Of a stretch of 64,000 bases of DNA, positions 1 to 60,311 are shown in pieces. The notes under the pieces are model-generated. The model was not told the DNA's origin and ran no database searches. It saw only the letters and a list, made by a program, of their open reading frames with translations. A program made the position numbers and the translations under genes. The stretch is from Schistocephalus solidus (Eukaryota; Platyhelminthes; Cestoda; Diphyllobothriidea; Diphyllobothriidae). The first letter of the stretch is position 1. Every line of letters starts with the position of its first letter. Location: assembly GCA_017591395.1 (NCBI GenBank), contig WEDG01001326.1, positions 1 to 64,000 on the forward strand. Reading direction: 5' to 3'.

Positions 1-2362
1 GGGCTGGTTGTGTTTGTCGGTTGTGATCGGGAATATGATGATAGTGTGGGGCTCACTGATCTGCTTAAGGAACATGTATGTTCCGTTGTGCTCTGAGCTC
101 AGACTAGAGCTCCCAGTATACCGGTCGCATAGCGACGTAGCATAGTGATGAAAATGGAACCGACAAAGACAAGGGAACTCGAATGGCTATTTCTGGCTTT
201 ATTAGCCGTCATCAGCCAGTCATACCCAATCCCAAGTGTAGGCTACACCTGGGATTCGGAAACCCGCGACCTTTGGTATTTGAGTCCGACGCTCTACCAT
301 TGAGCCACGGGCTCGTTGTTTGTCGGTTGTGATCGGGAATATGATGATAGTTTAGGCTCACCGATCTGCTTAAGGAACATGTGATGTTCCGTTGTGCCCT
401 GAGCTCAGGACTAGAGCCCTCGCAGGCGGTCGCATAGCGACGTGTATGTACAGAAATGAACTGACAAAGACAAGGGAGACCGGAATGGCCATTTCTGGCT
501 TTATAAGCCGTCATCAGCCAATTATACCCAATCTCCAAGTGCACTACCTGGGATTCGAACCCCGCGACCTTTTGGTATTTGAGTCGAACGGTCTACCATT
601 GAGCCACGGGCTCGCTGTTTTGGTCGGTTGTGATCGGAATATGATGATAGTGTGGGGCTCACCGATCTGCTTAAGGAATATGTATGTTCCGTTGTGCCCT
701 GAGCCTCAGACTAGAGCTCTCTCGATGGCGGTCGCATAGCGAGGTAGCATATGATGAAATGGAACCGACAAAGACAAGGGAGACCGGAATGGCCATTTCT
801 GGCTTATTAGCCGTCATCAGCCAGTCATACCCAATCCCAGAGTGGCACACCTGGGATTCGAACCCGCGACCTTTGCATTTGAGTCGAACGCTCTACCTTT
901 GAGCCACGGGCCTCGTTTTTGTCGGTTGTGATCGGGAATATGATGATAGTGTGGGGCTCACCGATCTGCTTAAGGAACATTTATGTTCCGGTTGTGCCCC
1001 TGGAGCTCAGACTAGAGCCCTCGCAGGCGGTCGCATAGCGAGGTGTAGCATATGATGAAAATGGAACAGACAAAGACAAGGGAGACCGGAATGGCCATTT
1101 CTGGCTTATTAGCCGTCATCAGCCAGTCATACCCAATCCCAAGTGTGGCACACCTGGGTTTCTGAACACGCGACCTTTGGTATTTGAGTCGAACGCTTTC
1201 TACAATTGAGCCACGGGCTCGTTGTTTTGTCGGTTGTGATCGGGAATATGATGATAGTGTGGGGCTCACCGATCTGCTTTAAGGAACATGTATGTTCCGT
1301 TGTGCTCTGAGCTCAGACTAGAGCTCTCGCAGGCGGTCGCATAGCGACGTGCAGCATATGAGTGAAATGGAACCGACCAAGACAAGGGAGACCGGAATGG
1401 CCATTTCTGGCTTATATAGCCGTCATCAGCCAGTCATACCCAATCCCAAGTGTGGCACACCCGAGATTCGAACCCGCGACCTTTGGTATTTGAGTCAAAC
1501 TGCTCTACCATTGAGCCACGGGCTCGTTGTTTTGTCGGTTGTGATCGGGAATATGATGATAGTGTGGGGCTCACCGATCTGCTTAAGGAACATGTATGTT
1601 CCGTTGTGCCCCTGGAGCTCAGACTAGAGCCTCGCAGGCGGTCGCATAGCGACGTGTAGCATATGATGAAATGAGAACCGACAAAAGACAAGGGAGACCG
1701 GAATGGCCATTTCTGGCTTATTAGCCGTCATCAGCCAGTCATACCCAATCCCAAGTGTGGCACACCTGGGATTCGAACCCGCGACCTTTGGTATTTGAGT
1801 CGAACGCTCTACAATTGAGCCACGGGCTCGTTGTTTTGTCGGTTGTGATCGGGAATATGATGATAGTGTGGGGCTCACCGATCTGCTTAAGGAACATGTA
1901 TGTTCCGTTGTGCCCTGGAGCTCAGACTAGAGCCCTCGCAGGTGGTCGCATAGCGACGTGTAGCATATGATGAAATGGAACCGACAAAGACAAGGGAGAT
2001 CGGAATGGCCATTTCTGGCTTATAAGCCGTCATCAGCCAGTCATACCCAATCCCAAGTGTGGCACACCTGGGATTCGAACACGCGACCTTTGGTATTTGA
2101 GTCGAACGCTCTACCATTGAGCCACGGGCTCGTTGTTTTGTCGGTTGTGATCGGGAATATGATGATAGTGTGGGGCTCACCGATCTGCTTAAGGAACATG
2201 TATGTTCCGTTGTGCCCTGGAGCTCAGACTAGAGCCCTCGCAGACGGTCGCATAGTGACGTTTAGCATATGATGAAATGGAACCGACAAAGACTAAGGGA
2301 GACCGGAATGGCCATTTCTGGCTTGTAAGCCGTCATCAGCCAGTCATACCCAATCCCAAGTG

Positions 2363-2435
2363 TGGCACACCTGGGATTCGAACCCGCGACCTTTGGTATT
2401 TGAGCCTAACGCTCTACCATTGAGCCACGGGCTCG
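2363..2435 (-). other. tRNA-like Pol III promoter head (representative unit)
   Basis: Minus strand. The A box TGGCTCAATGG lies at 2417-2427 and the B box GGTTCGAATCC at 2374-2384; both match the internal Pol III consensus. Counting tRNA positions gives CAA in the anticodon place (Leu-like), preceded by T33. The anticodon stem has two mismatches and the 5' GAGCCCG cannot pair with the 3' GTGTGCC, so this is a tRNA-derived promoter and not a working tRNA. The same segment occurs in every array unit, with scattered substitutions (for example a changed A box near 1811-1822). Confidence 0.8.
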
Positions 2436-2604
2436 TTGTTGTTTGTCGGTTGTGATCGGGAATATGATGATAGTGTGGGGCTCACCGATCTGCTTAAGGA
2501 ACATGTATGTTCCGTTGTGCCCTGGAGCTCAGACTAGAGCCCTCGCAGGCGGTCGCATAGCGACGTGTAGCATATGATGAAATGGAACCGACAAAGACAA
2601 GGGA

Positions 2605-2649
2605 GACCGGAATGGCCATTTCTGGCTTATTAGCCGTCATCAGCCAGTC
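2605..2649 (-). ncRNA. Hammerhead-ribozyme-like fold (representative unit)
   Basis: Read on the minus strand, the order is GACUGG (stem I), CUGAUGA (core), a 14-nt stem-loop with GGCU/AGCC pairing (stem II), GAAA (core), palindromic AUGGCCAU (stem III, counting the last A of GAAA), U at position 17, then CCGGUC (stem I partner, one G-U pair). Order and spacing match the schistosome hammerhead, including a 14-nt stem II segment and a loop-less palindromic stem III. Departures: the pair next to the core (10.1/11.1) is C with A instead of G-C, and the cleavage triplet is AUU instead of GUC. Activity may therefore be weak or lost. Equivalent copies lie at 782-826, 1084-1128, 2301-2345 and about every 302 bp. 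Stem III of 4 bp without a loop suggests dimer cleavage, as in other short-stem-III hammerheads. Confidence 0.62.
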
Positions 2650-5600
2650 ATACCCAATCCCAAGTGTGGCACACCTGGGATTCGAACCCACGACCTTTGG
2701 TATTTGAGTCGAACGTCTACCATTGAGCCACGGGCTCGTTGTTTTGTCGGTTATGATCGAAATATGATGATAGTGTGGGGCTCACCGATCTGCTTAAGGA
2801 ACATGTATGTTCCGTTGTGCCCTGAAGCTCAGACTAGAGCCCTCGCAGGCGGTCGCATAGCGAGGTGTAGCATAGGATGAAAATGGAACCGTCAAAGACA
2901 AGGGAGACCGGAATGGCCATTTCTGGCTTATTAGCCGTCATCAGCCAGTCATACCCAATCTCATGTGTGGAACACATGGGATTCGAACCCGCGACCTTTG
3001 GTATTTGAGTCGAACGCTCTACCATTGAGCCACGGGCTCGTTGTTTTGTCGGTTGTGATTGGGAATATGATGATAGTGTGGGGCTCACCGATCTGCTTAA
3101 GGAACATGTATGTTCCGTTGTGCCCTGGAGCTCAGACTAGAGCCCTCGCATACGGCCCCATCGTGAAGTGAAGCATATGATGAAATGGAACCGACAAAGA
3201 TTAGGGGGACCGGAATGGCCATTTCTGGCTTTTTAGCCGTCATCAGCCAGTCATACCCAATCCCAAGTGTGGCACACCTGGGATTTGAACCGTTTAACCT
3301 GCGGTATTTGAGTCGAACGCTCTACCATTGAGCCACGGGCTCGTTGTTTTGTCGGTTTTGATCGGGAATATGATGATAGTGTGGTTCTCACCGATCTGCT
3401 TAAGGAACATGTATGTTACGTTGTGCCCTGGAGCTTAGACTAGAGCCCTCGCAAGCGGTCGCATTGTGACTCGTAGCATATGATGAAATAGAAACGACAA
3501 TGACAAGGGAAATCGGAATGGCCATTATTGGCTTATTAATCGTCATCAGCCAGTCATACCCAATCCCAAGTGCGGCACACCTGGGATTCGAACCCGCAAC
3601 ATTTAGTATTTGAGTCCAACACTCTACCATTGGGCCACGGGCCCGTTAATTAGTCGGTTGTGATCGGGAATATGATGATAGTGTGAAGCTCACCGATCTG
3701 CTTAAGGAAAATGTATGTTCCGTTGTGCCCTGGAGCTTAGACTTGAGCCCTCACAAGTGCTCGCTTAGTAACGTGTAGCATATGATTAAATGGAACCGCA
3801 AAGACAACGGAAATCGGAATGGCAATTTCTGGCTTATTAATCGTCATCAGCCAGTCATACCCAATCCCAAGTGTGGCACACCTGGGATTCGAACCCGCAA
3901 CATTTAGTATTTGAGTCCAACACTCTACCATTGAGCCACGGGCCCGTTAATTAGTCGGTTGTGATCGGGAATATGATGATAGTGTGGGGCTCACCGATCT
4001 GCTTAAGGAACATGTATGTTCCGTTGTGCCCTGGAGCTCAGACTATAGCCCGCGCAGACGGTCTCATAGCGAGGTGCAGCATATGATGAAATGGAACCGA
4101 CAAAGACAAGGGAGACCGGAATGGCCATTTCTGGCTTATAAGCCGTCATCACCGTCATACCCAATCCCAAGTGTGGCACACCTGGGATTCTGAACCCGCG
4201 ACCTTTGGTATTTGAGTCGAACGCTCTACTAATGAGCCACGGGCTCGTTGTTTTGTCGGTTGTGATCGGGAATATGATGATAGTGTGGGGCTCTCCAATA
4301 TGCTTAAGGAACATGTATGTTCCATTGTGCCCTGGAGCTCAGACTTTAGCCCGCGCAGACGGTCTCATAGCGAGGTGCAGCATACGATGAAATGGAACCG
4401 ACAATGACAAGGGAAATCGGAATGGCCATTTCTGGCTTAAGAGCCGTCATCAACCTGTCATACCCAATCCGAAGTTTGGCACACCTGGGATTCGACCCCC
4501 GCGACCTTTGGTATTTGAGTCAACGCTCTACCATTGAGCCACGGGCTTGTGGTTTTGTCGGTTGTTATCGGGAATATGATGATAGTGTGGGGCTCAATGA
4601 TCTGCTTAAGGAACATGTAAGTTCCGTTGTGCCTGGAGCTCAGATTTGAGCTCTCGCAGGCTGTCGCCTAGCGACGTGTAGCATATGATGAAATGGAACC
4701 GACAAAGACAAGGGAGACCGGAATGGCCATTTCTGGCTTATAAGCCGTCATCAGCCAGTCATACCCAATCCCAAGTGTGGCGAACCTGGGATTCGAACAC
4801 GCGACGTTTGGTATTTGAGTCGAACGCTCTACAATTAAGCCACGGGCTCGTTGTTGTGTCGGTTGTGATCGGGAATATGATGATAGTGTGGGGCTCACCG
4901 ATCTGCTTAAGGAACATGTATGTTCCGTTGTGCCCTGGAGCTCAGACTAGAGCCCGCGCATACGGCCCCATCGTGAAAAGAAGCATATGATGAAATGGAA
5001 CCGACAAAGATTCGGGGGGCCGGAATGACCATTTCTGGATTTTTAGCCGTCATCAGCCAGTCATACCCAATCCCAAGTGTGGCACACCTGGGATTCGAAC
5101 CCGCGACCTTTGGTATTTGAGTCGAAACGTTCTACCATTGAGCCACGGGCTCGTTGTTTTGTCGGTTGTGATCGGGAATATGATGATAGTGTGGGGCTCA
5201 CCGATCTGCTTAAGGAACATGTATGTTCCGTTGTGCCCTGAGCTCAGACTAGAGCCCTCGCAGGCGGTCGCATAGCGACGTGTAGCATATGATGAAATGG
5301 AACCGACAATGACAAGGGAGACTGGAATGGCCATTTCTGGCTTATTAGCCATCATCAGCCAGTAATACCCATTCCCAAGTGTGGCACACCTGGGATTCGA
5401 AACCCGCGACCTTTGGTATTTGAGTCAGAACGCTTTCTACCATTGAGCCACGGGCTCGTTGTTTTGTCGGTTGTGATCGGGAATATGATGATAGTGTGGG
5501 GCTCACCGATCTGCTTAAGGAACATGTATGTTCCGTTGTGCCCTGGAGCTCAGACTAGAGCCCTCGCAGGCGGTCGCTTAGCGACGTGTTGCATATGATG

Positions 5601-6524
5601 AAATGGAACCGACAAAGACAAGGGAGACCGGAATGGCCATTTCTGGCTTATGAGCCGTCATCAGCCAGTCATACCCAATTCCAAGTGCACCACACCTGGG
5701 ATTCGAACCCGGGACCTTTGGTATTTGAGTCAAACGCTCTACCATTGAGACACGGGCTCGTTGCTTTGTCGGTTGTGATCGGGAATATGATGATAGTGTG
5801 AAGCTCACCGATCTGCTTAAGGAACATGTATGTTCCCTTGTGCCCTGGAGTTCAGACTTGAGCCCTCGCAGGTGGTCGCATAGTGACGTGTAGCATATGA
5901 TAAAATGGAACCGACAAAGACAGGGGAGACCGGAATGGCCATTTCTGGCTTATTAGCCGTCATCAGCCTGTCATACCCAATCCCAAGTGTGGCACACCTG
6001 GGATTGGAACCCGCGACCTTTGGTATATAAGTCGAACGCTCTACCATTGAGCCACGGGCTCGTTGTTTTTTCGGTTGTGATCGGAAATATGATGATAGTG
6101 TTGGGCTCACCGATCTGCTTAAGGAACATGTATGTTCCGTTGTGCCCTGGAGCTCAGACTAGAGCCCTCGCAGGCGGTCGCATAGCGACGGGTAGCATAT
6201 GATGAAATGGAACCGACAAAGACAAGGGAGACTGGAATGGCCATTTCTGGCATTTTAGCCGTCATCAGCCAGCCATACCCAATCCCAAGTGTGGCACACC
6301 TGGGATTGGAACCCGCGACCTTTGGTATATGAGTCGAACGCTCTACCATTGAGCCACGGGCTCGTTGTTTTGTCGGTTGTGATAGGGAATATAATGATAG
6401 TGTGGGGCTCACCGATCTGCTTAAGGAACATGTATGTTCCGTTGTGCCTTGGAGCTGAGACTAGAGCCCTCGCAGGCGGTCGCATAGCAACGTGTAGCAT
6501 ATGTTAAAATTGAATCGAATTCTA

Positions 6525-6728
6525 GATGTGCCACACTTGGGATTAGGTATGACTGGCTGATGACGGCTAATTAGCCAGAAATGGCCAGTCCGGTCTCCCT
6601 TGTCTTTGTCGGTTCCATTTAATCATATTCTACACGTCGCTATGCGACCGCCTGCGAGGGCTCTATTCTGAGCTCCAGGGCAAAACGGAACATACATGTT
6701 CCTTAAGCTGATCGGTGAGCTCCACACT

Positions 6729-6735
<7 letters not shown>
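6525..6735 (+). repeat. Inverted partial array unit at the array end
   Basis: The unit sequence appears here in the opposite orientation, from the end of the tRNA-like part through the hammerhead-like segment (GACTGG at 6551, CTGATGA at 6557-6563, GAAA at 6578-6581, CGGTC ending 6595) to the ACACTATCAT motif, where a TA tract takes over. This makes a head-to-head junction with the array near 6512-6525. In this copy the bases before the expected cleavage point read AGTC instead of ATT. Confidence 0.85.

Positions 6736-6788
<53 letters not shown>
6732..6788. repeat. (TA)n microsatellite
   Basis: About 57 bp of pure TA that begins inside the ATCATCATATT part of the inverted unit, so it probably expanded from the unit's own AT-rich step. 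It marks the right edge of the array. Confidence 0.97.
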
Positions 6789-16374: not shown

Positions 16375-16500
16375 TTTAAAGCGTTTGGCAACTTCGGTAG
16401 AGCCAGGGGTTGCAAGACCTGGCGTTGGGTATAGCTGCCTGATGACGGTTAATAAGACAGGAGTGACCATGCAAGCGTCCATTGTCTCTCTCGTTAATAT
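16375..16500 (+). repeat. Dispersed degenerate copy of the array SINE
   Basis: The order of motifs follows the array unit: a damaged tRNA-like part, then GTTGGGTATAGCTGCCTGAT running into GACGG, TTAATAAG, and a TCC.TTGTCTCTC block. The CTGATGA core survives but the GAAA core reads GGAG, so any hammerhead here is dead. It shows that the array unit also exists as single dispersed elements. Confidence 0.6.
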
Positions 16501-17204
16501 ATCGTTCTATTTATGAGAGTGGACGGGCGAATACCTCTGATGTCATAAATGTCCAATTCACGAGTTATTCATAAGAGGTCTCTACCTGCGTACTGATGCA
16601 CACGAGTGCTCAGACGTACGCGGTTCCAACTTCGACAAACGACTATTTCGATGGGTGTGCTTAGGCTGACAATTGTAACAGCTAGAAACGGCATAGAGGT
16701 TTTCATTCGGTTGAAACAACGATATTCGAAATTGAAGTTGGGCAACAGATACATTATGCAGCGCAAGCTCTGTACTAATGTACACTAATCCAATAACAGT
16801 CTTAGCCATCGTAAGGTATCGTGGAAAGTGTGCACTGCCCACACCGGAGGAATCTAGTGGGATGCAACCTAAACCTACACTGTTTGATTCGTACAGCGTT
16901 GTGTGTTTGGTGGAACCTGTATACGTCAGCAAACGCACGAGTCTCTCAACCGAATGCTATGCGGCGCATTGAAAGGGCTTTCAGGAAGGTGCGCAAGATC
17001 GCACGTAGGGTAGGAGACGGTGGTTTAAGGAAGAAGCAGCGTGGAAACGATGCATAGTATACTCTGAATACATTATTTGAAACGATAACCACCAGAAAAA
17101 GAACCAAGTTATATTACCGATTTCGACCAAGAATGCTAGATTCCTAAAAACAACGATAAAGCATTAATCCCCAGAGAAGTGTTCAAGCGTCCGAAAAAAC
17201 AGAG
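16501..17204. other. No gene recognised
   Basis: Overlapping short open frames on both strands (16582-16938, 16821-17057) show no family signature. The part just before 17205 may be the lost 5' part of the Penelope-like element, but I see no RT motif in it. Confidence 0.45.
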
Positions 17205-19251: not shown

Positions 19252-21124
19252 ACCCCTTTGAAGTTTCAGCTTGACATGTGGCCAGCTGACATGATAAGAG
19301 ATCACCTAAAGAAGACCAGACTCTAGTGGCCTCTGTTTAGTGTTTGTAGGTGACATGTCATTTCGCTTGTGCTTTCAATTAGCTTATTTGACAATGCGAG
19401 TAGGATAAGATGTAAATTCAGTTTTCGGTCCTTGTAGACACTGCTGTACAAACTCTTCTTTACTATAGGCGAATGGCCTAGAAGGCTGACTACATGACGG
19501 ACGACAGATTGCGTCCTGAATGACGGACTTTGACAATAATGATAGATACGAAAGAATTCCGGTTAATTGATTTAACAGATGATGCGGTTCACAACGATTG
19601 TTTTCAGAAAGCTGTCTCGCGATAAAAAAAATAACATAATGGTTCAGACGGTGAACACACTAGAGATTGCGCTCAAAAGGACTTAAACCTCATCTATCCA
19701 CATAGAATACTCGGTTACGTAGACCAACGATGTTGATAGTATTAATTAAAGCCAAAAAGCGACACAACAGAAAGATTCGGTAATCTTCTATTTGCAGACA
19801 ACGATCCTCTGACACGCAGGACAGATGTGCATCAGCAAGACTGAAATGGGTATTTCTGTGTTATTTTTCGGCTCAGGATCCGCAGTGCACTCAGTCGGTT
19901 TTGAGAGGGTTAGCAATGAATAATTGAGTAGCAGACTTACCTGGACGACATTGCAGCAGCCATTTCTGACTTATTTGCCCTCACAACCTATAGATAATTA
20001 AAACCCAGGACACGCCTAAAAAACCTCAACCTGAATCCGTGGGCTATTCAGCAAAGTGGTCTACAAACTGTTTTCCTGTCGTATGAAAGGAGGAATATCT
20101 AGCTACATGGAAATGGCCTGCGTAGATCTATTCTGTGTGTAGAAAATATTTTTCATGGGGCCTGAGAGCTTGAGCTGTGCAGATAATACAGGCTGAGTAA
20201 TGAGTAAGTGCTGTTGGTAAGGAGAAGGAAGCTAGGGTGTCAGTTCCTGATTTATTTACTGTCATCAGCCAATTCTGCTTAAAACCGGGATGTACGCACG
20301 AAATTTCAAATCAAGCCAGTTTATAATCGAGTAGTTGGCACACACAACTCGATTTTGAACTCCTTCTATATACTCAACAATAAATTTTACCTGAGAGGCT
20401 AAACGACCATGTGGCCTACCACTGGTAGATTTTTCCTTCTGTGGATTAACCAAACTTGCGCATTTCTTACAAATATGCCACTTTACTGGTACATGTTTTC
20501 GATAACACATCCGCACATCCGCTGTCTTCTGCCTCAAGTACACGCTTGTATAAGCTGCAGCAAGAAGAATGAGCTGTAAACTCCACCACAATCGATGCAC
20601 GTCGTCCGACCTCTGGGTGCATGCGCACAACCATTCATTTAATCGTTTGCTCCACGATCAATACTTCCATTTCGCTCTGTGTGATGGTTACCTGTAATCG
20701 ATCTCCATTCTTATCCGTTCCCCGGTTTTGATTTTGCCCGGGTGATTTATGGGTGTCTAAGTTCATGAAGAATGCTCTCAGATGCGCTGACAGTACACCA
20801 TGACCGATCACAGCACGAATAAATGTTCGCAAAGGCAAGCACAATCGTTCTTGCTTCATATAATATGGCATCTCATAGCCTCATTACCCTTAGAAAAGCT
20901 CAGTTCGCTAAATCAAAAACGAGAATTACTGATAACGAAAACGCTTTATGTTGTTCCATAGACGACCTTTCGGACTGAAAAATTCTACATAGTTGTCAAA
21001 TGAGTATTCTTTTGAAAACATTTTTTACCAATTTACACGAATTCTAATTAAAATTGAATCCTTCTATAATTTCATGTATCTTCTGCGGATTTATAGCATG
21101 CACTGAACCAGGAACCCATAAGCG
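19252..21124. repeat. Non-coding, with two degenerate array-SINE fragments
   Basis: Two stretches follow the array unit's plus-strand text: 19950-20015 (GCCATTTCTGACTTATTTGC, then CCCAGGA) and 20240-20290 (CTGTCATCAGCCAATTCTGC). In the second the minus strand still reads CTGATGA, but GAAA has become GGAA. A 121-codon minus-strand frame (20265-20630) and a 78-codon one (20635-20871) lie here with no recognisable motif. Confidence 0.5.
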
Positions 21125-22979: not shown

Positions 22980-24475
22980 AACTCCCCTTTGTCAACTGAG
23001 CGAAATTATCGATACTAATCGGGATAAATGTGCCTGCCGCTCACTGGGCACTCGAACAACACTACGGCGGGCAGCAGGATCCCTATGCTGTTCGGACACC
23101 TCTCAATTGGGTACTTATGGAACCAGTAGCTGAACAAGATCGTCGAGGAGCTAAAGTCAATTTTTTGAGCGAGAAAGACCTAGTCACAGAAAGGCAAGAA
23201 CAGATGTGGAACTTCGAGTTCGGTGAGCCAAGGCCTTAAGCAAGCACATTGCGTAGACGACAGAAGAGTTTTGGAGTTGTTCAAATCCCACACACAACGT
23301 TCCTTTTGCCCGTAGACGTTTATATGCCTTGAAGAACAGAATGATGAAAAACTCTGAATATAGGGAGCAATTCATTACGGCGATCTCTGAATATATCAAT
23401 AAGAGTTACGCAGAACCTGTTGCACCGACAACTCCTTTTGGTCCTGCATAATTTCGGTATCTACCCGACCACTCTAGAGTAAGTCTGATGAAACCGGAAA
23501 AGCGGAGAGCAGTGTTCGACTGCGCCGGCCGATACAGGGGTACATCGCTCAACCACCAATTACTTCAGGGGCCAGACCTGGCCAACAGTTTATGTGGAGT
23601 TTTTAATTAGATTCCGTGAATTTCCGTACGTATTGGTGGCAGACATAGAAGCTATGTTCCACCAGGTTCAAGTTCCAAATTATCGACGTTCGTTTTTAAG
23701 TTTTCTGTGGTGTTAAAATTGTAACTTAGCATACGATCCTGAGGCTTATCAAATGGCAGTACATCCGTTCGGTGCAACCTCTTCCACATGTGTCGCTATC
23801 TACGCACTAAAAATATCGATAAATCAGGTGACAGACGTACCCAAAGCTCACTGTGCCAAGTACTTGCCGAGGTGTTTCTACGTTGACGTTTGTTTAATCA
23901 GCCACGACTCTGTGCAAACTCTTAGGGACGTGGCTTCTCGTCTGCGAACAGCCCTGCGAAATCATGGCTTCAGTCTAAATAAATTGCGTAGCAACTCGGT
24001 TGAGACCCCAATAGATATCTCTGAGGAAGTGCAATTTGATGGGGAATATGCCTCGAACTTAAACCAGCCAATACTCAGGGAAAAATAGGTGTCGAATGAA
24101 ACAAAGTTACAGACACATTCATTTTCACAGTCAAGTGCCTTACGGATACGGTTTACAGACAAGCAATGCCCTCTTATATTTCAACCCTCTTTGATCCACT
24201 TGGGTTTGTTGCTCCCGTTCTGTTACCGGCCAAGTTACTACTGCAGCAGTTGTGGCGATCGATCATAGGATTCGACGATCAGATTGACGACGAGTACGTA
24301 CGGCAGTGGTTTACCTGGATGAAAGAGTTTCAGAGCCTTGGCAATGTTCAAATCCGACGCTGCTTGAACCCGGCTGCTTTAGATACAGTTGAGCAGTATC
24401 AACCACACCGTTTCTCAGACGCGTCGAAGAGCGGGAACGAGGCCGTAGTCTACCTTCATGCAACGACTTAAGATG
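22980..24475 (+). pseudogene. BEL/Pao pol: protease end and reverse transcriptase, broken
   Basis: The protease-to-RT linker reads AHWALEQHYGGQQDPYAV and LNWVLMEPVAE (23030-23130). The RT palm follows: LVADIEAMFHQVQVPNY (~23635), MAVHPFGATSS (~23752), then the catalytic box at ~23878 as FYVDVCLIS, where family members have FYVDDC; one metal-binding aspartate is lost. Next come LRDVASRLRTALRNHGF and, at 24166-24470, the connection with STLFDPLGFVAPVLLPAKLL and FSDASKSGNEAVVYL, the start of the A17/RNase H region. Stops and frame changes occur at 23238, 23714, 24087 and 24470. Confidence 0.92.
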
Positions 24476-24482
24476 GTACTAC

Positions 24483-25225
24483 ATGCACAAGGTTTTTTGG
24501 GGCCAATCTCGAGTTACGCCTCTTAAGGTCCAAACCATACCACGGTTAGCGCTCACCGCTGCAGTTCTGGCCGCCAAACTAATGACAAAGGCCGAGTCGA
24601 AACTAACACTATTAATCTCGTCCAAGACCATGTGGACAGATTTCATGGTAGTTTTACAATGGGACCGAAACACTACGTCACGTCTCGAAACATTTGTAGC
24701 TAAACACATCCCTAACATATTATACGTATCAGATGCTTCAAAATGGAGGTACGTGAATTTCGAGAGTAACCCAGCAGAAGTAGGTTCAAGGACTGTAGGT
24801 GGTGAGAGGCTGGAAAAGAGTATGTGGCTCATGGATCCCGCATTTCTGAGCAAGAAGTTTGACAAATGGCCCAAGGAACCAGATCAACGACCCGTTGCTG
24901 TTTCAACGATGTGTGACGTTACCGTAAATACCGACCTTGTTGGGGATCATTGGCTGACGAATTTTTCAGGTTGTGTAAGCTGGGCGGAAACTTCTAAAGC
25001 ATGTTGCTTGGCTGCGACGATTTGCAGTTTTCCTGAAGAACAAACTCCTGCATCGATAAGAACCTGTTTCAAAGGTACTCACCATGGCAGACCTAGAGGG
25101 TGCCGAAAGCGATGTCTTGAGGTTGGTCCAGAGACAATACTTCGAGAATGAGCTTAAGTGCCTACGGAGCAATTTGCGAAACACCGATTTCAAGAAGTTG
25201 AAACCGACCAACAGTCCGCTGTAGC
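24483..25225 (+). pseudogene. BEL/Pao pol: peptidase-A17/RNase H-type region
   Basis: A 222-codon open stretch reads KVQTIPRLALTAAVLAAKL, then a WTDFMVVLQW box equivalent to the RNase H-like WTDS..VL..I, RLETFVAKHI, and SNPAEVGSRTV (family: SNPADVASRG). The region joins directly to the RT connection upstream after a stop at ~24470. The usual aspartates and the S of WTDS are partly changed. It degrades the RNA strand during cDNA synthesis in active relatives. Confidence 0.88.
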
Positions 25226-46830: not shown

Positions 46831-49195
46831 ACAGTTCGCGTAAACAAGGGATAGCTTTTGCTGAATTTTGATACTTCTAGGTAGCTTATTCCAGATTGCT
46901 ATAGCGTTTACCGAAAAAAACTGTCGGTATCTAACTGTGCGTGCCAAAGGAAGAAATAAAAATACATCTCGATGACTGGTGCGCCGAGAGTGGTCGAGGT
47001 GCCTCAGAGATTTAAGGGGGTTAAATGTACGACTGTTTAGTAGTTTAAACAGTAAAATAGTCCCTTCTGTAATCTGCGAAGCCACAGCGGGTCAAGGCTT
47101 GTAAGCTCACAGCGTTGGTGATAGGACAGGTTTCGGTGATCTGAATAGAAAACTTTTTGTAAAGAAGTGCTGGACTGATTCTATCTTCTTTCGTTCACTA
47201 GCGTGCAGGAGACTAAATAGAAACGAGCAGTATTCCAGACTAGGCCTGACATACATTTTATAGAGGCTGATTCTAATTTTGACGGTTTTAAAAATTTCTG
47301 AGAATAAACCCAGTAGTTTTGGCGTGCTTTCGAGACAATCAGGGCGCAGTGCTCTGACAGATTAAGACTACTAGAATATGATATGCCCAGATCCTTTATA
47401 ACTCCGGGCACGTTTAGATCGTGACCGTCTATGCTTAGGTGGGGCTGATGGTTGTCGCCAATAACCATCACGGAGCACTTTTGCCAAGAAAGTGAGAGGC
47501 GCCATGTGCGACACCACTGAGCGAAGACCTGAAGATCCGTTTTTAAGAGCTCAAGCACGATGTTGCGATCAACCGGTTTATATCGATAGGCAACTTTTAA
47601 ATCGTCAGCGTACATTAAGGGCCTACCATACTGAAAACAATCAGGAACATCGTTGACAAAGAGGCAAAATAGAATCGGGCCGAGCACGCTGCCCTGAATA
47701 ACTCTGCTCCCCACATGCGTGGGGTTGGACATAACATCAGAAATTTTAACCCGTTGTGCGCGAGCATTCAAATAGGAAAATATTAAGTTCAGAAGCTTGT
47801 TACCTATGCCGAAGGAGGCAAGTTTCAGCAGTAGGAGATCATGGTCAACACGATCAAAAGCCTTAGTGAAATCGAAGTATACGGTGTAAATTGCAAAACC
47901 GCTGTCTCTAGATTGTAGCACATGATCAAAGAAAGAGAGCTGGCAAGTGTCACAAGACCTTTTTTCGAGAAAACCATGCTGAGCCGCATTGAGTAGGTTA
48001 TTCTCTGTTAGGTGAAATATCATCTTGTCGTTGATCAAGGACTCGAAGGTCTTCGAGACTGCTGGTAGTGTATTTATTGGTCTAAAGTCGTCAAATGACG
48101 TAGGTGGGCCGTGTTTCGGAATAGGCAGTATGTGCGATTCCTTCCATAAAATAGGGGAAAGTTTCACGTTCAAGAGCAAGATTAAATATCTTATACAGAA
48201 GGGACGGAAAAATATCGTTTGCATCCGCCTTTAGAACGCTGACCGGGACGCCATCTGGTCCTGGACTGTAAGATTGACGAAAACGCTAATGGCTACGGTC
48301 ACGTCCCAGAGGGTAAAAGTTATGGTTTCGAGGACATTACCGGTTCAAACCCGGATGTCAGGAAAGGGTATTTTCACTTAACGTTCTAAACAAAAAAGCA
48401 TTGAAGCTATCAGCAGTCAACTTAGCGTCAGCTATTGGGTTTCCTAAGGCATCTCGAAGTACGGGGTGCTGCGTTTTTCTCTGCGTTTTTACTGTGCGCG
48501 AAAAGAGCTTCGCAACATTTAAAGAAGGGTTTTCGGCAACGTCAACCTCATCGGCTTGTCGTTTTTCGTCAGACAGCCTCTTAGCCTCTTTAAAGATTTG
48601 TTGGATCAAGGGCAGGACGGAGGTGTCGTTTTGTAGATGAAAACGACGGGAGAGTCTACGCAGTCTACGGCGGAATTATAAAGGGAGGTAGACTTTATCC
48701 TTGACATTAATTATTTTCTTACGGGGAACAAAACGAGAAATGAGGGGACCTAGAACTTTTTAAAAAGTATCAGTTCAAACATTCACATCCGAACATACAA
48801 AGAAGTTAGTCCAGTCGTGGGAATTTAGGTGTGTTAGCAATTCCCTCATATTTGCTTATCTGAAATCACGAAAAAAGCTATATTTTTTGGAAAACGTTTC
48901 AGCAGCCTCTAGTTCTAGTGTAGAAAGAACTAAAGTATGATCAGAATTCCCCGGTGGATCTAAAGGTGACACTGACAATGGCTGACATCCTCTACAAAAA
49001 ATAAGATCAAGTTTGTTTGATCCTCGGGTGGGAAAATCATCTACCTGGTCCCACATGCCTATATCTATGGCCTAAAGTAGGTCTTCGAACTTTGCAGGAC
49101 CGGAAGTTGGAAACAAGTGAACTTCAGGAAGATTGAAGTTACCTGCAATCAAGCAGTACTTCAGATTTAAGTCATCTGATAAGTATTGGTTTCTA
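46825..49195 (-). pseudogene. Family E: CR1/Jockey-type ORF2, 5'-truncated
   Basis: The longest open frame in the window (347 codons, 48224-47181, minus) is an RT: WKESHILPIPKHGPPTSFDD, FRPINTLPAVSKTFESLIND, LLNAAQHGFLEKRSCDTCQL, YFDFTKAFDRVDHDLLLLKL, VIQGSVLGPILFCLFVNDV, MYADDLKVAYRY (active-site YADD kept), then the thumb VIKDLGISYSSSLNLSEHCA. The C-terminal part continues at 47085-46825 (RYRQFFSVNAIAIWNKLPRS). Upstream are a linker (48609-48358) and the end of the endonuclease (IAGNFNLPEVHLF, ~49150; GNSDHTLVLSTLELE, ~48950). The element stops at ~49195 inside the endonuclease, as in 5'-truncated insertions. About 90 bp at 48270-48358 interrupt the start of the RT. Confidence 0.9.
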
Positions 49196-58809: not shown

Positions 58810-60311
58810 ATTTGAACCCAGATAGGAAACTGGATATATCTTGTGAAATATCCAGCAGAAATCTCCATGTGGAAGACAGAACTAAAAATCTTCAGAAATC
58901 GAGGCAAGGAAACAAGATTAAAATGATGTACACAAATGTGCAGAGTCTATTGAACAAAAATGGATGAAATTAAACTGGTCGTGGACCATTTACAACCTGA
59001 CTTCATAGCTCTAACTGAAACATGGTTAAATGAACAAATCGCAGACACCGAAGTCCGAATAGACGGTTTTCAGCTTATCCGCATGGATAGAAACGGACGT
59101 AGGGGTGGTGGAATCGCAATGTTTATACGAGAAGGCATTGACTTTATTCCGGATGGGCCCTCGCCAAATAGGATCTCGTCTTGCGAAATACTTTGTTTTA
59201 AACTGGAAAGTTGGACAAAATCATTAGAAATGGGTTTGTCAGTCGACGCGGTCTACATTGACTTTAGCAAAGCCTTTGACAGGGTTCCACACAAACGTCT
59301 GATCTTTAAGCTCCGTCAAATGGGTGTGACTGGCAACCTACTCAAATGGTTGGCCGACTTTCTCACAGACAGGCGCCAGCGTGTTTGTATCGGAGACACT
59401 AAGTCTCACTGGGAAACCGTTCACAGTGGAGTTCCGCAGGGCAGCGTTCTGGGTCCCATTTTGTTTCTGATATACGTAAACGACTGCCTGGATTGTCTGA
59501 CATGCGAGAAGGTAATGTTCGCTGACGATTTGAAGTTATGGAACTCGATTGAAAAACCGGAGGATGCGCGAAAATTACAAAAACTTAGATCGATTGCAAA
59601 CATGGTGTGATGAGTGGCTGCTGAACCTTAATCTTAACAAATGCCAAATAATCCGACTGCGGTCTAGTTCCAGAAGGCTGATTGAGTTTGAATACCAGTA
59701 CTCCATCAGTGGTCACCAACTCCAGGAGGTAAATATTCTAAAGGACTTGGGTATATGGATAACACCAACTCTCAAACCATCGTCGCACTGTGCGAATATC
59801 GCAAAGAAAGCTATGTGTATCTTAGGCGCAATCAGGAGGTCCTTCGTTAATTTTGACGGAGAGCTTTTTGGGCGCGTTTATGGAACATTTATCCGGCCGG
59901 TGTTGGAATATTGCGTTCAGGCGTGGCGCCCTTGGACGAAACATGACTACGCTCTGCTGGAGAAAGTTCAACGGAGGGCAACGAAACTAGTCAGCGGATT
60001 GGAATGCCTACCCTATGAGGGCCGCCTAGAAAGACTTAAAATTTTTCCTCTCTTATAGGCAATACAGAGGGGATATGATCTTAGTCTTCAAACTGGTCAG
60101 AGGAGTTGATTGTGCTCTTCAGATGGCCAACTTTTTTGAATTGGCAAACATGACAAGTCTCCGAGGTCACCAATACAAACTGAAAAGAAATCACGCCAAA
60201 CTTGAAGTACGGGCCAACTTCTTTTCCCAAAGGGTGATTGACGAATGGAACAAGCTGCCAGCCTCAGTTGTTCAGGCTGAAAGCGTTGAAATGTTTAAAA
60301 AGAAGACTTGA
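58746..60311 (+). pseudogene. Family C (C2): ORF2 with in-frame endonuclease-RT fusion deletion
   Basis: The endonuclease N-terminal part (MMYTNVQSLL, ALTETWLNEQIADTEVRIDG, GGGIAMFIREG) runs to ~59205 and passes in phase, at CFKLESWTKSL, into the RT. GDFN, SDH and the first RT motifs are gone. Kept RT: VYIDFSKAFDRVPHKRL (~59245), LLKWLADFLTDRRQRVCIGD, SGVPQGSVLGPILFLIYVND (~59428), FADDLKLW (~59515, active site intact). The thumb and C-terminal part continue in 59549-60058 and 60075-60311 (ILKDLGIWITPTLKPSSHCA, RPVLEYCVQAWRPWTKHDYA, NFFSQRVIDEWNKLPASV). The 216-codon fused frame (58960-59610) lacks a working nuclease. Confidence 0.9.

What the first reader, a model, noticed from the sequence alone, without database searches (positions are those of the whole stretch)
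1..6735. Tandem tRNA-like/hammerhead array resembling schistosome Smalpha, in an array form
Seen: ~21 units of ~302 bp, each with Pol III A and B boxes and, ~20-30 bases downstream on the same strand, GACUGG-CUGAUGA-N14-GAAA-palindromic stem III-U-CCGGUC. Known: Smalpha of schistosomes pairs a tRNA-like promoter with a hammerhead having a 14-nt stem II and a loop-less palindromic stem III. Inference: this is the same kind of self-cleaving, Pol III-transcribed repeat kept as a tandem array, which could release monomer or circular RNA.
Basis: partly seen in the sequence, partly recalled or inferred. Interest (0 to 1): 0.88.

Follow-up and report, generated by a model that had tools for sequence, protein, structure and literature searches.

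The report
tRNA-headed hammerhead ribozyme tandem repeat
A repeat of about 302 bases that joins a tRNA-like promoter to a hammerhead self-cutting RNA motif stands here in a row of 21 copies; animal repeats of this kind are known, and what is unusual is a nearly fixed mismatch inside the ribozyme and a possibly separate origin from the schistosome version.

Summary
Window 1-6518 is a tandem array of 21 whole units (299-315 bp) plus a part-unit. On the minus strand each unit carries a tRNA-like head and, 28 nt after the B box in the consensus, a type I hammerhead layout. Rfam gives no hammerhead hit, but it also missed canonical hammerheads in my 8 control loci, so that is weak evidence. A covariance model built from 36 unrelated hammerheads finds 13 of 21 units and an inverted copy at E<0.05. 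A descriptor passes 13 of 21 units, against 20 hits in 4.16 billion random bases. Against activity: the pair closing stem II (10.1-11.1) is C.A in 18 of 19 distinct rows, there is no covariation beyond shuffles, stem I varies more than the unit average, and no monomer is predicted to fold as a hammerhead (0 of 17). In one two-unit RNA a double hammerhead between neighbours is predicted far better than two single ones (-144.7 against -134.3 kcal/mol). "Smalpha in array form" is not new: Smalpha (W36.2) is known as W-chromosome arrays of up to about 450 copies. Best reading: a retrozyme/Smalpha-like tRNA-headed SINE in satellite form, processed, if at all, through dimeric hammerheads. Organism unidentified; activity untested.

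The parts
1..6518 (-). tandem array, 21 whole units of 299-315 bp (period 302) plus a part-unit at 6365-6518; transcript strand minus
2969..3039 (-). tRNA-like head of unit u10, the only one above Rfam's gathering score (35.9 bits against 29)
6230..6274 (-). hammerhead of u21, best model score (20.1 bits); C.A at 10.1-11.1
5919..5972 (-). hammerhead region of u20 (16.3 bits; the model and the descriptor use an alternative stem I partner here)
5626..5670 (-). hammerhead of u19 (14.6 bits)
5320..5364 (-). hammerhead of u18 (18.1 bits), the one unit with a standard pair (U-A) at 10.1-11.1
4716..4760 (-). hammerhead of u16 (16.0 bits)
3208..3252 (-). hammerhead of u11 (17.2 bits)
2906..2950 (-). 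hammerhead of u10 (16.1 bits), consensus sequence
2605..2649 (-). hammerhead of u09 (16.1 bits), consensus sequence
2301..2345 (-). hammerhead of u08 (15.2 bits)
1696..1740 (-). hammerhead of u06 (16.1 bits)
1390..1435 (-). hammerhead of u05 (12.8 bits)
1084..1128 (-). hammerhead of u04 (16.1 bits)
782..826 (-). hammerhead of u03 (16.1 bits)
6523..6731 (+). inverted, 5'-truncated copy (starts near the B box); its hammerhead at 6551-6590 scores 12.1 bits; left end approximate
6732..6787 (.). (AT)28 directly after the inverted copy
16406..16510 (+). diverged dispersed copy covering consensus 64-168, including the hammerhead region (degenerate)
   Evidence: E 1.7e-12; alignment
20222..20282 (-). 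weak, diverged dispersed match to the hammerhead region
   Evidence: E 0.0041
19888..19988 (-). weak, diverged dispersed match (consensus 95-198), marginal
   Evidence: E 0.011; alignment

Best explanation
A tRNA-headed SINE of the retrozyme/Smalpha kind that now stands as a satellite array. Inferred route: RNA polymerase III starts at the tRNA-like head, reads through several units, and neighbouring units pair through their palindromic stem III to make a double (dimeric) hammerhead that cuts the multimer into unit-length RNAs of about 302 nt, which a host ligase could close into circles. Shown here: the array, the promoter-like boxes, the hammerhead layout beyond chance, diverged copies elsewhere in the window, and that a double hammerhead is predicted much better than single ones. 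Inferred: Pol III use, cleavage, circles, retrotransposition. Cleavage is probably slow because of the C.A closing pair.
For: Array. tRNA heads, A and B boxes together in 10 of 21 units. Descriptor 13 of 21 units, one of them (u20) only in an alternative arrangement, against 1.5e-6 per 302 nt in random sequence. Model R1 from 36 unrelated hammerheads: 13 of 21 units and the inverted copy at E<0.05, 12 of these 14 above the best of 57,265 off-array bases (13.2 bits). Core plus stem III: 7 of 399 cells deviate, 21.1 expected. TTTT, a Pol III stop (recalled), is absent from the consensus and present in 7 of 21 units, so read-through transcripts would hold 2-4 units. One 441-nt two-unit RNA: MFE -147.8, double hammerhead -144.7, two single hammerheads -134.3 kcal/mol. 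Circular consensus MFE -111.7, z -5.8, 0 of 200 shuffles as low. Dispersed diverged copy, E 1.7e-12. Weak helix III with dimeric cleavage is described for animal type I hammerheads (PMC7761336 passages).
Against: C.A at 10.1-11.1 in 18 of 19 distinct rows; no covariation beyond shuffles (score 0.084 against 0.078, 92 of 500 shuffles as high). PMC3088659 (passages) calls this pair, with 15.1-16.1, the most conserved and says U-U supports more cleavage than any other mismatch there. No Rfam hammerhead hit. Stem I deviates more than average (21 of 252 cells, 13.4 expected) and the slid-mask control is only 24 of 302. The dimer result is not special: 34 of 36 control hammerheads also give a double hammerhead as dimer MFE, window units only 10 of 17, and the dimer energy gain (-10.5) lies inside the control range -11.9 to -3.8. 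The tandem MFE itself is not the double hammerhead. Paired fraction 0.66 is below the 'above 70%' given for retrozymes in PMC4918200. No RNA data.
Confidence: 0.5

Rival explanations
1. The array is a DNA-level satellite made by unequal exchange from one SINE copy whose hammerhead was already dead or nearly so; RNA processing plays no part in its upkeep.
For: C.A nearly fixed and present in 2 of 3 diverged dispersed copies, so it is old. Most conserved stretch of the unit lies elsewhere (consensus about 220-280) and core conservation is modest. Adjacent units slightly more alike than distant ones (distance 0.099 against 0.112), some neighbours and u11/u17 share variants.
Against: Core plus stem III are more conserved than random columns (permutation P 0.004); 18 of 21 units keep the exact palindrome; one unit has a standard closing pair.
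Confidence: 0.38
2. It is Smalpha itself, from a schistosome.
For: Same parts in the same order: tRNA-like head, type I hammerhead, about 300-335 bp unit, tandem and dispersed copies.
Against: No match to RF00163, whose printed consensus is aUccagCUGAcGAGUCCCAAA..GGACGAAACG..CGUCcuggAu, at E<=5 over the array or E<=10 on a 211-base slice. Smalpha is reported as tRNA-Gln-TTG derived (PMC2770079 passages); here the anticodon position reads CAA by my reading of the Rfam alignment. Unit 302 against 332-335 bp. Window GC 39-50%.
Confidence: 0.07
3. The hammerhead likeness is chance in a SINE body.
For: C.A mismatch, no Rfam hit, no covariation.
Against: Descriptor rate 1.5e-6 per 302 nt and independent covariance model.
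Confidence: 0.05

Closest known systems
Smalpha / W-element family W36.2 of Schistosoma mansoni (Sjalpha in S. japonicum)
   Same: tRNA-like head plus type I hammerhead; SINE-like; also tandem (W36.2: 333-335 bp x 173.4 and 332 bp x up to 450.5; PMC8490949 passages)
   Different: different hammerhead stems and no RF00163 match; C.A closing pair; unit 302 bp; tRNA head apparently not Gln-TTG
Metazoan non-LTR retrozymes (coral, mussel, axolotl)
   Same: type I hammerhead in short tandem repeats (150-450 bp) without coding capacity; strongly self-paired unit (PMC7229834 abstract and first part of Results)
   Different: a tRNA-like Pol III promoter; PMC7761336 says retrozymes do not seem to harbour promoters (passages), and PMC4918200 names schistosome repeats with tRNA-Gln as the exception (passages)
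Newt satellite and amphibian retrozyme hammerheads (dimeric cleavage)
   Same: weak stem III expected to need a double hammerhead (PMC6155905 and PMC7761336 passages)
   Different: no tRNA head mentioned in the passages I saw; no sequence comparison made
Minimal hammerheads of Penelope-like elements
   Same: type I with minimal helix III, dispersed and in tandem (PMC7761336 passages)
   Different: no Penelope element looked for specifically; the reverse transcriptase ORFs that I scanned matched generic RVT_1 only (2 of 7 ORFs)

Membership tests
Hammerhead ribozyme, type I | conserved core CUGANGA ... GAAA and H17, open end in stem I | tested here: met
   13 of 21 units by descriptor; 13 of 21 plus inverted copy by model R1
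Hammerhead ribozyme, type I | base pair at 10.1-11.1 | tested here: not met
   standard pair in 1 of 19 distinct rows; this pair can be U-U in active natural cases (PMC3088659 passages), so it lowers but does not end the claim
Hammerhead ribozyme, type I | reaches Rfam gathering score | tested here: inconclusive
   no hit, but 8 of 8 control loci with canonical motifs also gave none at gathering and one scored 23 against 34
Hammerhead ribozyme, type I | self-cleavage | not testable with these tools
   needs in vitro transcription
Smalpha | tRNA-like head followed by type I hammerhead in a short repeat | tested here: met
Smalpha | hammerhead sequence of the schistosome family (RF00163) | tested here: not met
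   no RF00163 match
Smalpha | tRNA-Gln-TTG origin | tested here: inconclusive
   anticodon position reads CAA by eye; no tRNA set was compared
Metazoan retrozyme | non-coding tandem repeats of 150-450 bp with type I hammerheads | tested here: met
   no ORF of 150 aa or more overlaps the array
Metazoan retrozyme | expressed linear and circular RNAs of unit length | not testable with these tools
   no RNA data
tRNA-derived SINE | internal Pol III boxes and dispersed copies | tested here: inconclusive
   boxes met in 10 of 21 units; one clear and two weak dispersed copies; no target-site duplications or genome-wide count

The most novel reading that the evidence does not exclude
A second, independent fusion of a tRNA promoter with a hammerhead outside the Smalpha lineage, in which a C.A pair closes stem II and cleavage works only as a double hammerhead between neighbouring units of one Pol III transcript, so that the array itself is the working form and feeds unit-length circular RNAs.
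Probability: 0.2. Interest if true: 0.65.

Novelty: new member of a known kind. Interest (0 to 1): 0.36.

Why it matters
Reviews say that animal retrozymes do not seem to carry promoters (PMC7761336 passages). A tRNA-headed hammerhead repeat unlike Smalpha in sequence would show that the promoter-plus-ribozyme design arose or persisted more than once, and its nearly fixed C.A pair offers a natural test of whether dimeric hammerheads tolerate that mismatch. If the ribozyme is dead, it is an ordinary SINE-derived satellite.

Tried and rejected
Rfam as the deciding test: rejected after the positive control failed. Patterns for relatives: 0 in viral contigs and 0 in prokaryote genome contigs; neither collection is meant to hold animal genomes, so this says little. 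Control contigs L021 and L061, where hammerhead hits lay 309 and 245 bp apart, showed no such tandem array. Dimer folding as evidence of special design: dropped, since 34 of 36 control hammerheads do the same. Covariation: none beyond shuffles (one row of the alignment was given without its stem I 5' side and a second was short, so those cells were lost). ARAGORN found no tRNA (run with its bacterial setting). Core conservation alone: only modest. Organism: not identified; reverse transcriptase and Pao-type domains only say that it is most likely an animal.

Not done: direct comparison with a Smalpha DNA sequence, tRNA origin, target-site duplications, copy number in the genome, RNA evidence. 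The four units u01, u12, u13, u14 were left out of the 17-unit folding. Control hammerheads were chosen by a canonical motif, so they say nothing about how common C.A is.

Full report
What is there. Window 1-6518 is a tandem array with a period of 302 bp, 21 whole units of 299-315 bp, mean pairwise identity 0.889. It appears to run off the left edge of the window. At the right end a part-unit (6365-6518) meets an inverted copy (about 6523-6731, plus strand) that lacks the 5' part of the tRNA head and runs straight into (AT)28 at 6732-6787. No ORF of 150 aa or more overlaps the array.

Promoter-like head. Rfam's tRNA model matches 15 units at E<=5, one above the gathering score (2969-3039, 35.9 bits against 29) and 14 below. 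ARAGORN calls none (bacterial setting). A-box and B-box patterns (recalled) are present in 18 and 12 of 21 units, both in 10. The consensus has no TTTT on the transcript strand, and 7 of 21 units have one, so a Pol III transcript that stopped at each TTTT would span 2 to 4 units. This is inference.

Hammerhead layout. The consensus reads GACUGG-CUGAUGA-CGGCUAAUAAGCCA-GAAA-UGGCCA-UU-CCGGUC, 28 nt after the B box. A descriptor (core, stem I of 5 or more pairs, stem II of 4 or more, allowing a mismatch at 10.1-11.1) passes 13 of 21 units, u20 only in an alternative arrangement; it gave 20 hits (13 of them canonical) in 4.16e9 random bases, 1.5e-6 per 302 nt. Nothing else in the window passed.

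Covariance models. Rfam found no hammerhead at the gathering score, at E<=5, or at E<=10 on a 211-base slice. As a control I scanned 8 viral-contig loci that hold canonical hammerheads by descriptor: none was reported at gathering, and one that I took at a loose threshold scored 23 bits for RF00163 against a gathering score of 34. Rfam's silence is therefore weak evidence, though that control did score 23 bits where the array slice scored nothing. A model built from 36 such hammerheads gave, with filters off, 13 of 21 units and the inverted copy at E<0.05 (20.1 to 12.1 bits). The best of the other 57,265 window bases was 13.2 bits, E 0.075, a partial match; 12 of the 14 array hits exceed it. 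E-values of this model are rough.

Evidence against activity. On the alignment of 21 units, the inverted copy and one dispersed copy (19 distinct rows) the pair that closes stem II is C.A in 18 rows and U-A in one, u18. PMC3088659 (passages) calls this pair the most conserved with 15.1-16.1, and says that a U-U mismatch there supports more cleavage than any other. Covariation does not exceed shuffles. Catalytic core plus stem III deviate in 7 of 399 cells against 21.1 expected (permutation P 0.004), but 24 of 302 slid positions of the same mask do as well; the core alone has 4 of 231 against 12.2 (P 0.031; 42 of 302 slid); stem I deviates more than expected (21 of 252 against 13.4), and the most conserved stretch of the unit lies elsewhere.

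Folding. None of 17 units examined folds as a hammerhead as a monomer, while 28 of 36 control hammerheads begin as one. As a dimer, 10 of 17 units give a double hammerhead as the best structure, but so do 34 of 36 controls, and the energy gain (-10.5 kcal/mol) lies inside the control range. In one natural two-unit RNA of 441 nt the best structure has -147.8, the double hammerhead -144.7, two single hammerheads -134.3 kcal/mol. So if the motif cuts, the double form is the likely one; folding does not show that it cuts. The circular consensus is more stable than 200 of 200 shuffles (z -5.8), with 66% of bases paired, less than the 'above 70%' given for retrozymes (PMC4918200 passages).

Relatives. 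One clear diverged copy lies at 16406-16510 (E 1.7e-12) and two weak ones at 20222-20282 and 19888-19988 (E 0.0041 and 0.011). Two of the three keep C and A at the closing pair, so the mismatch is old. Their hammerhead cores are degenerate. Public collections at hand gave nothing, and the window's own genome could not be searched.

Comparison with the known. S. mansoni Smalpha is a SINE-like repeat with tRNA-Gln-TTG-like head (PMC2770079 passages) and a type I hammerhead; as W-element W36.2 it forms arrays of 333-335 bp x 173.4 and 332 bp x up to 450.5, and related W-element hammerheads cut in vitro (PMC8490949: abstract, section on hammerheads, passages). Type I hammerheads in 150-450 bp tandem repeats are described across animal phyla, flatworms included, with linear and circular RNAs shown in coral, mussel and axolotl (PMC7229834: abstract, first part of Results, passages). 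PMC4918200 (passages) names schistosome repeats as the exception that carries a tRNA. Ferbeyre et al. 1998 was not held; I know it only through citing papers. Seven literature searches, read as listings apart from the papers named, showed no tRNA-headed hammerhead repeat outside schistosomes; that is not proof that none is in print.

Verdict. The thing works like Smalpha and animal retrozymes; as a member of Smalpha proper it fails the one sequence test I could make. It is a new member of a known kind, with a nearly fixed C.A closing pair as its odd feature. Cleavage, Pol III transcription and circles are inferred, not shown.

Noticed in passing
window 1-1500: The leftmost units carry more single-base insertions and deletions than the rest (u01 and u02 are only 84-85% like the consensus), as if sequencing or assembly quality falls towards this end.
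   Followed up: no
unit consensus about 220-280 (for example window 2460-2520): The most conserved stretch of the unit is not the hammerhead but a segment with the inverted repeat GGAACAT-AC-ATGTTCC. Its role is unexplained.
   Followed up: partly
window 4851-5153 and 3041-3343: Units u17 and u11, six units apart, share a block of variants but differ elsewhere, which suggests exchange or conversion between units.
   Followed up: partly
window 24393-25151, 47181-48230, 58954-59610: Remains of retrotransposons: Pao-type peptidase (24393-25151) and reverse transcriptases (47181-48230, 58954-59610) among 7 ORFs scanned; the window is rich in mobile elements.
   Followed up: no
L057:1199-1253: A type-P5 twister ribozyme above Rfam's gathering score in a viral contig that also holds a hammerhead.
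   Followed up: no
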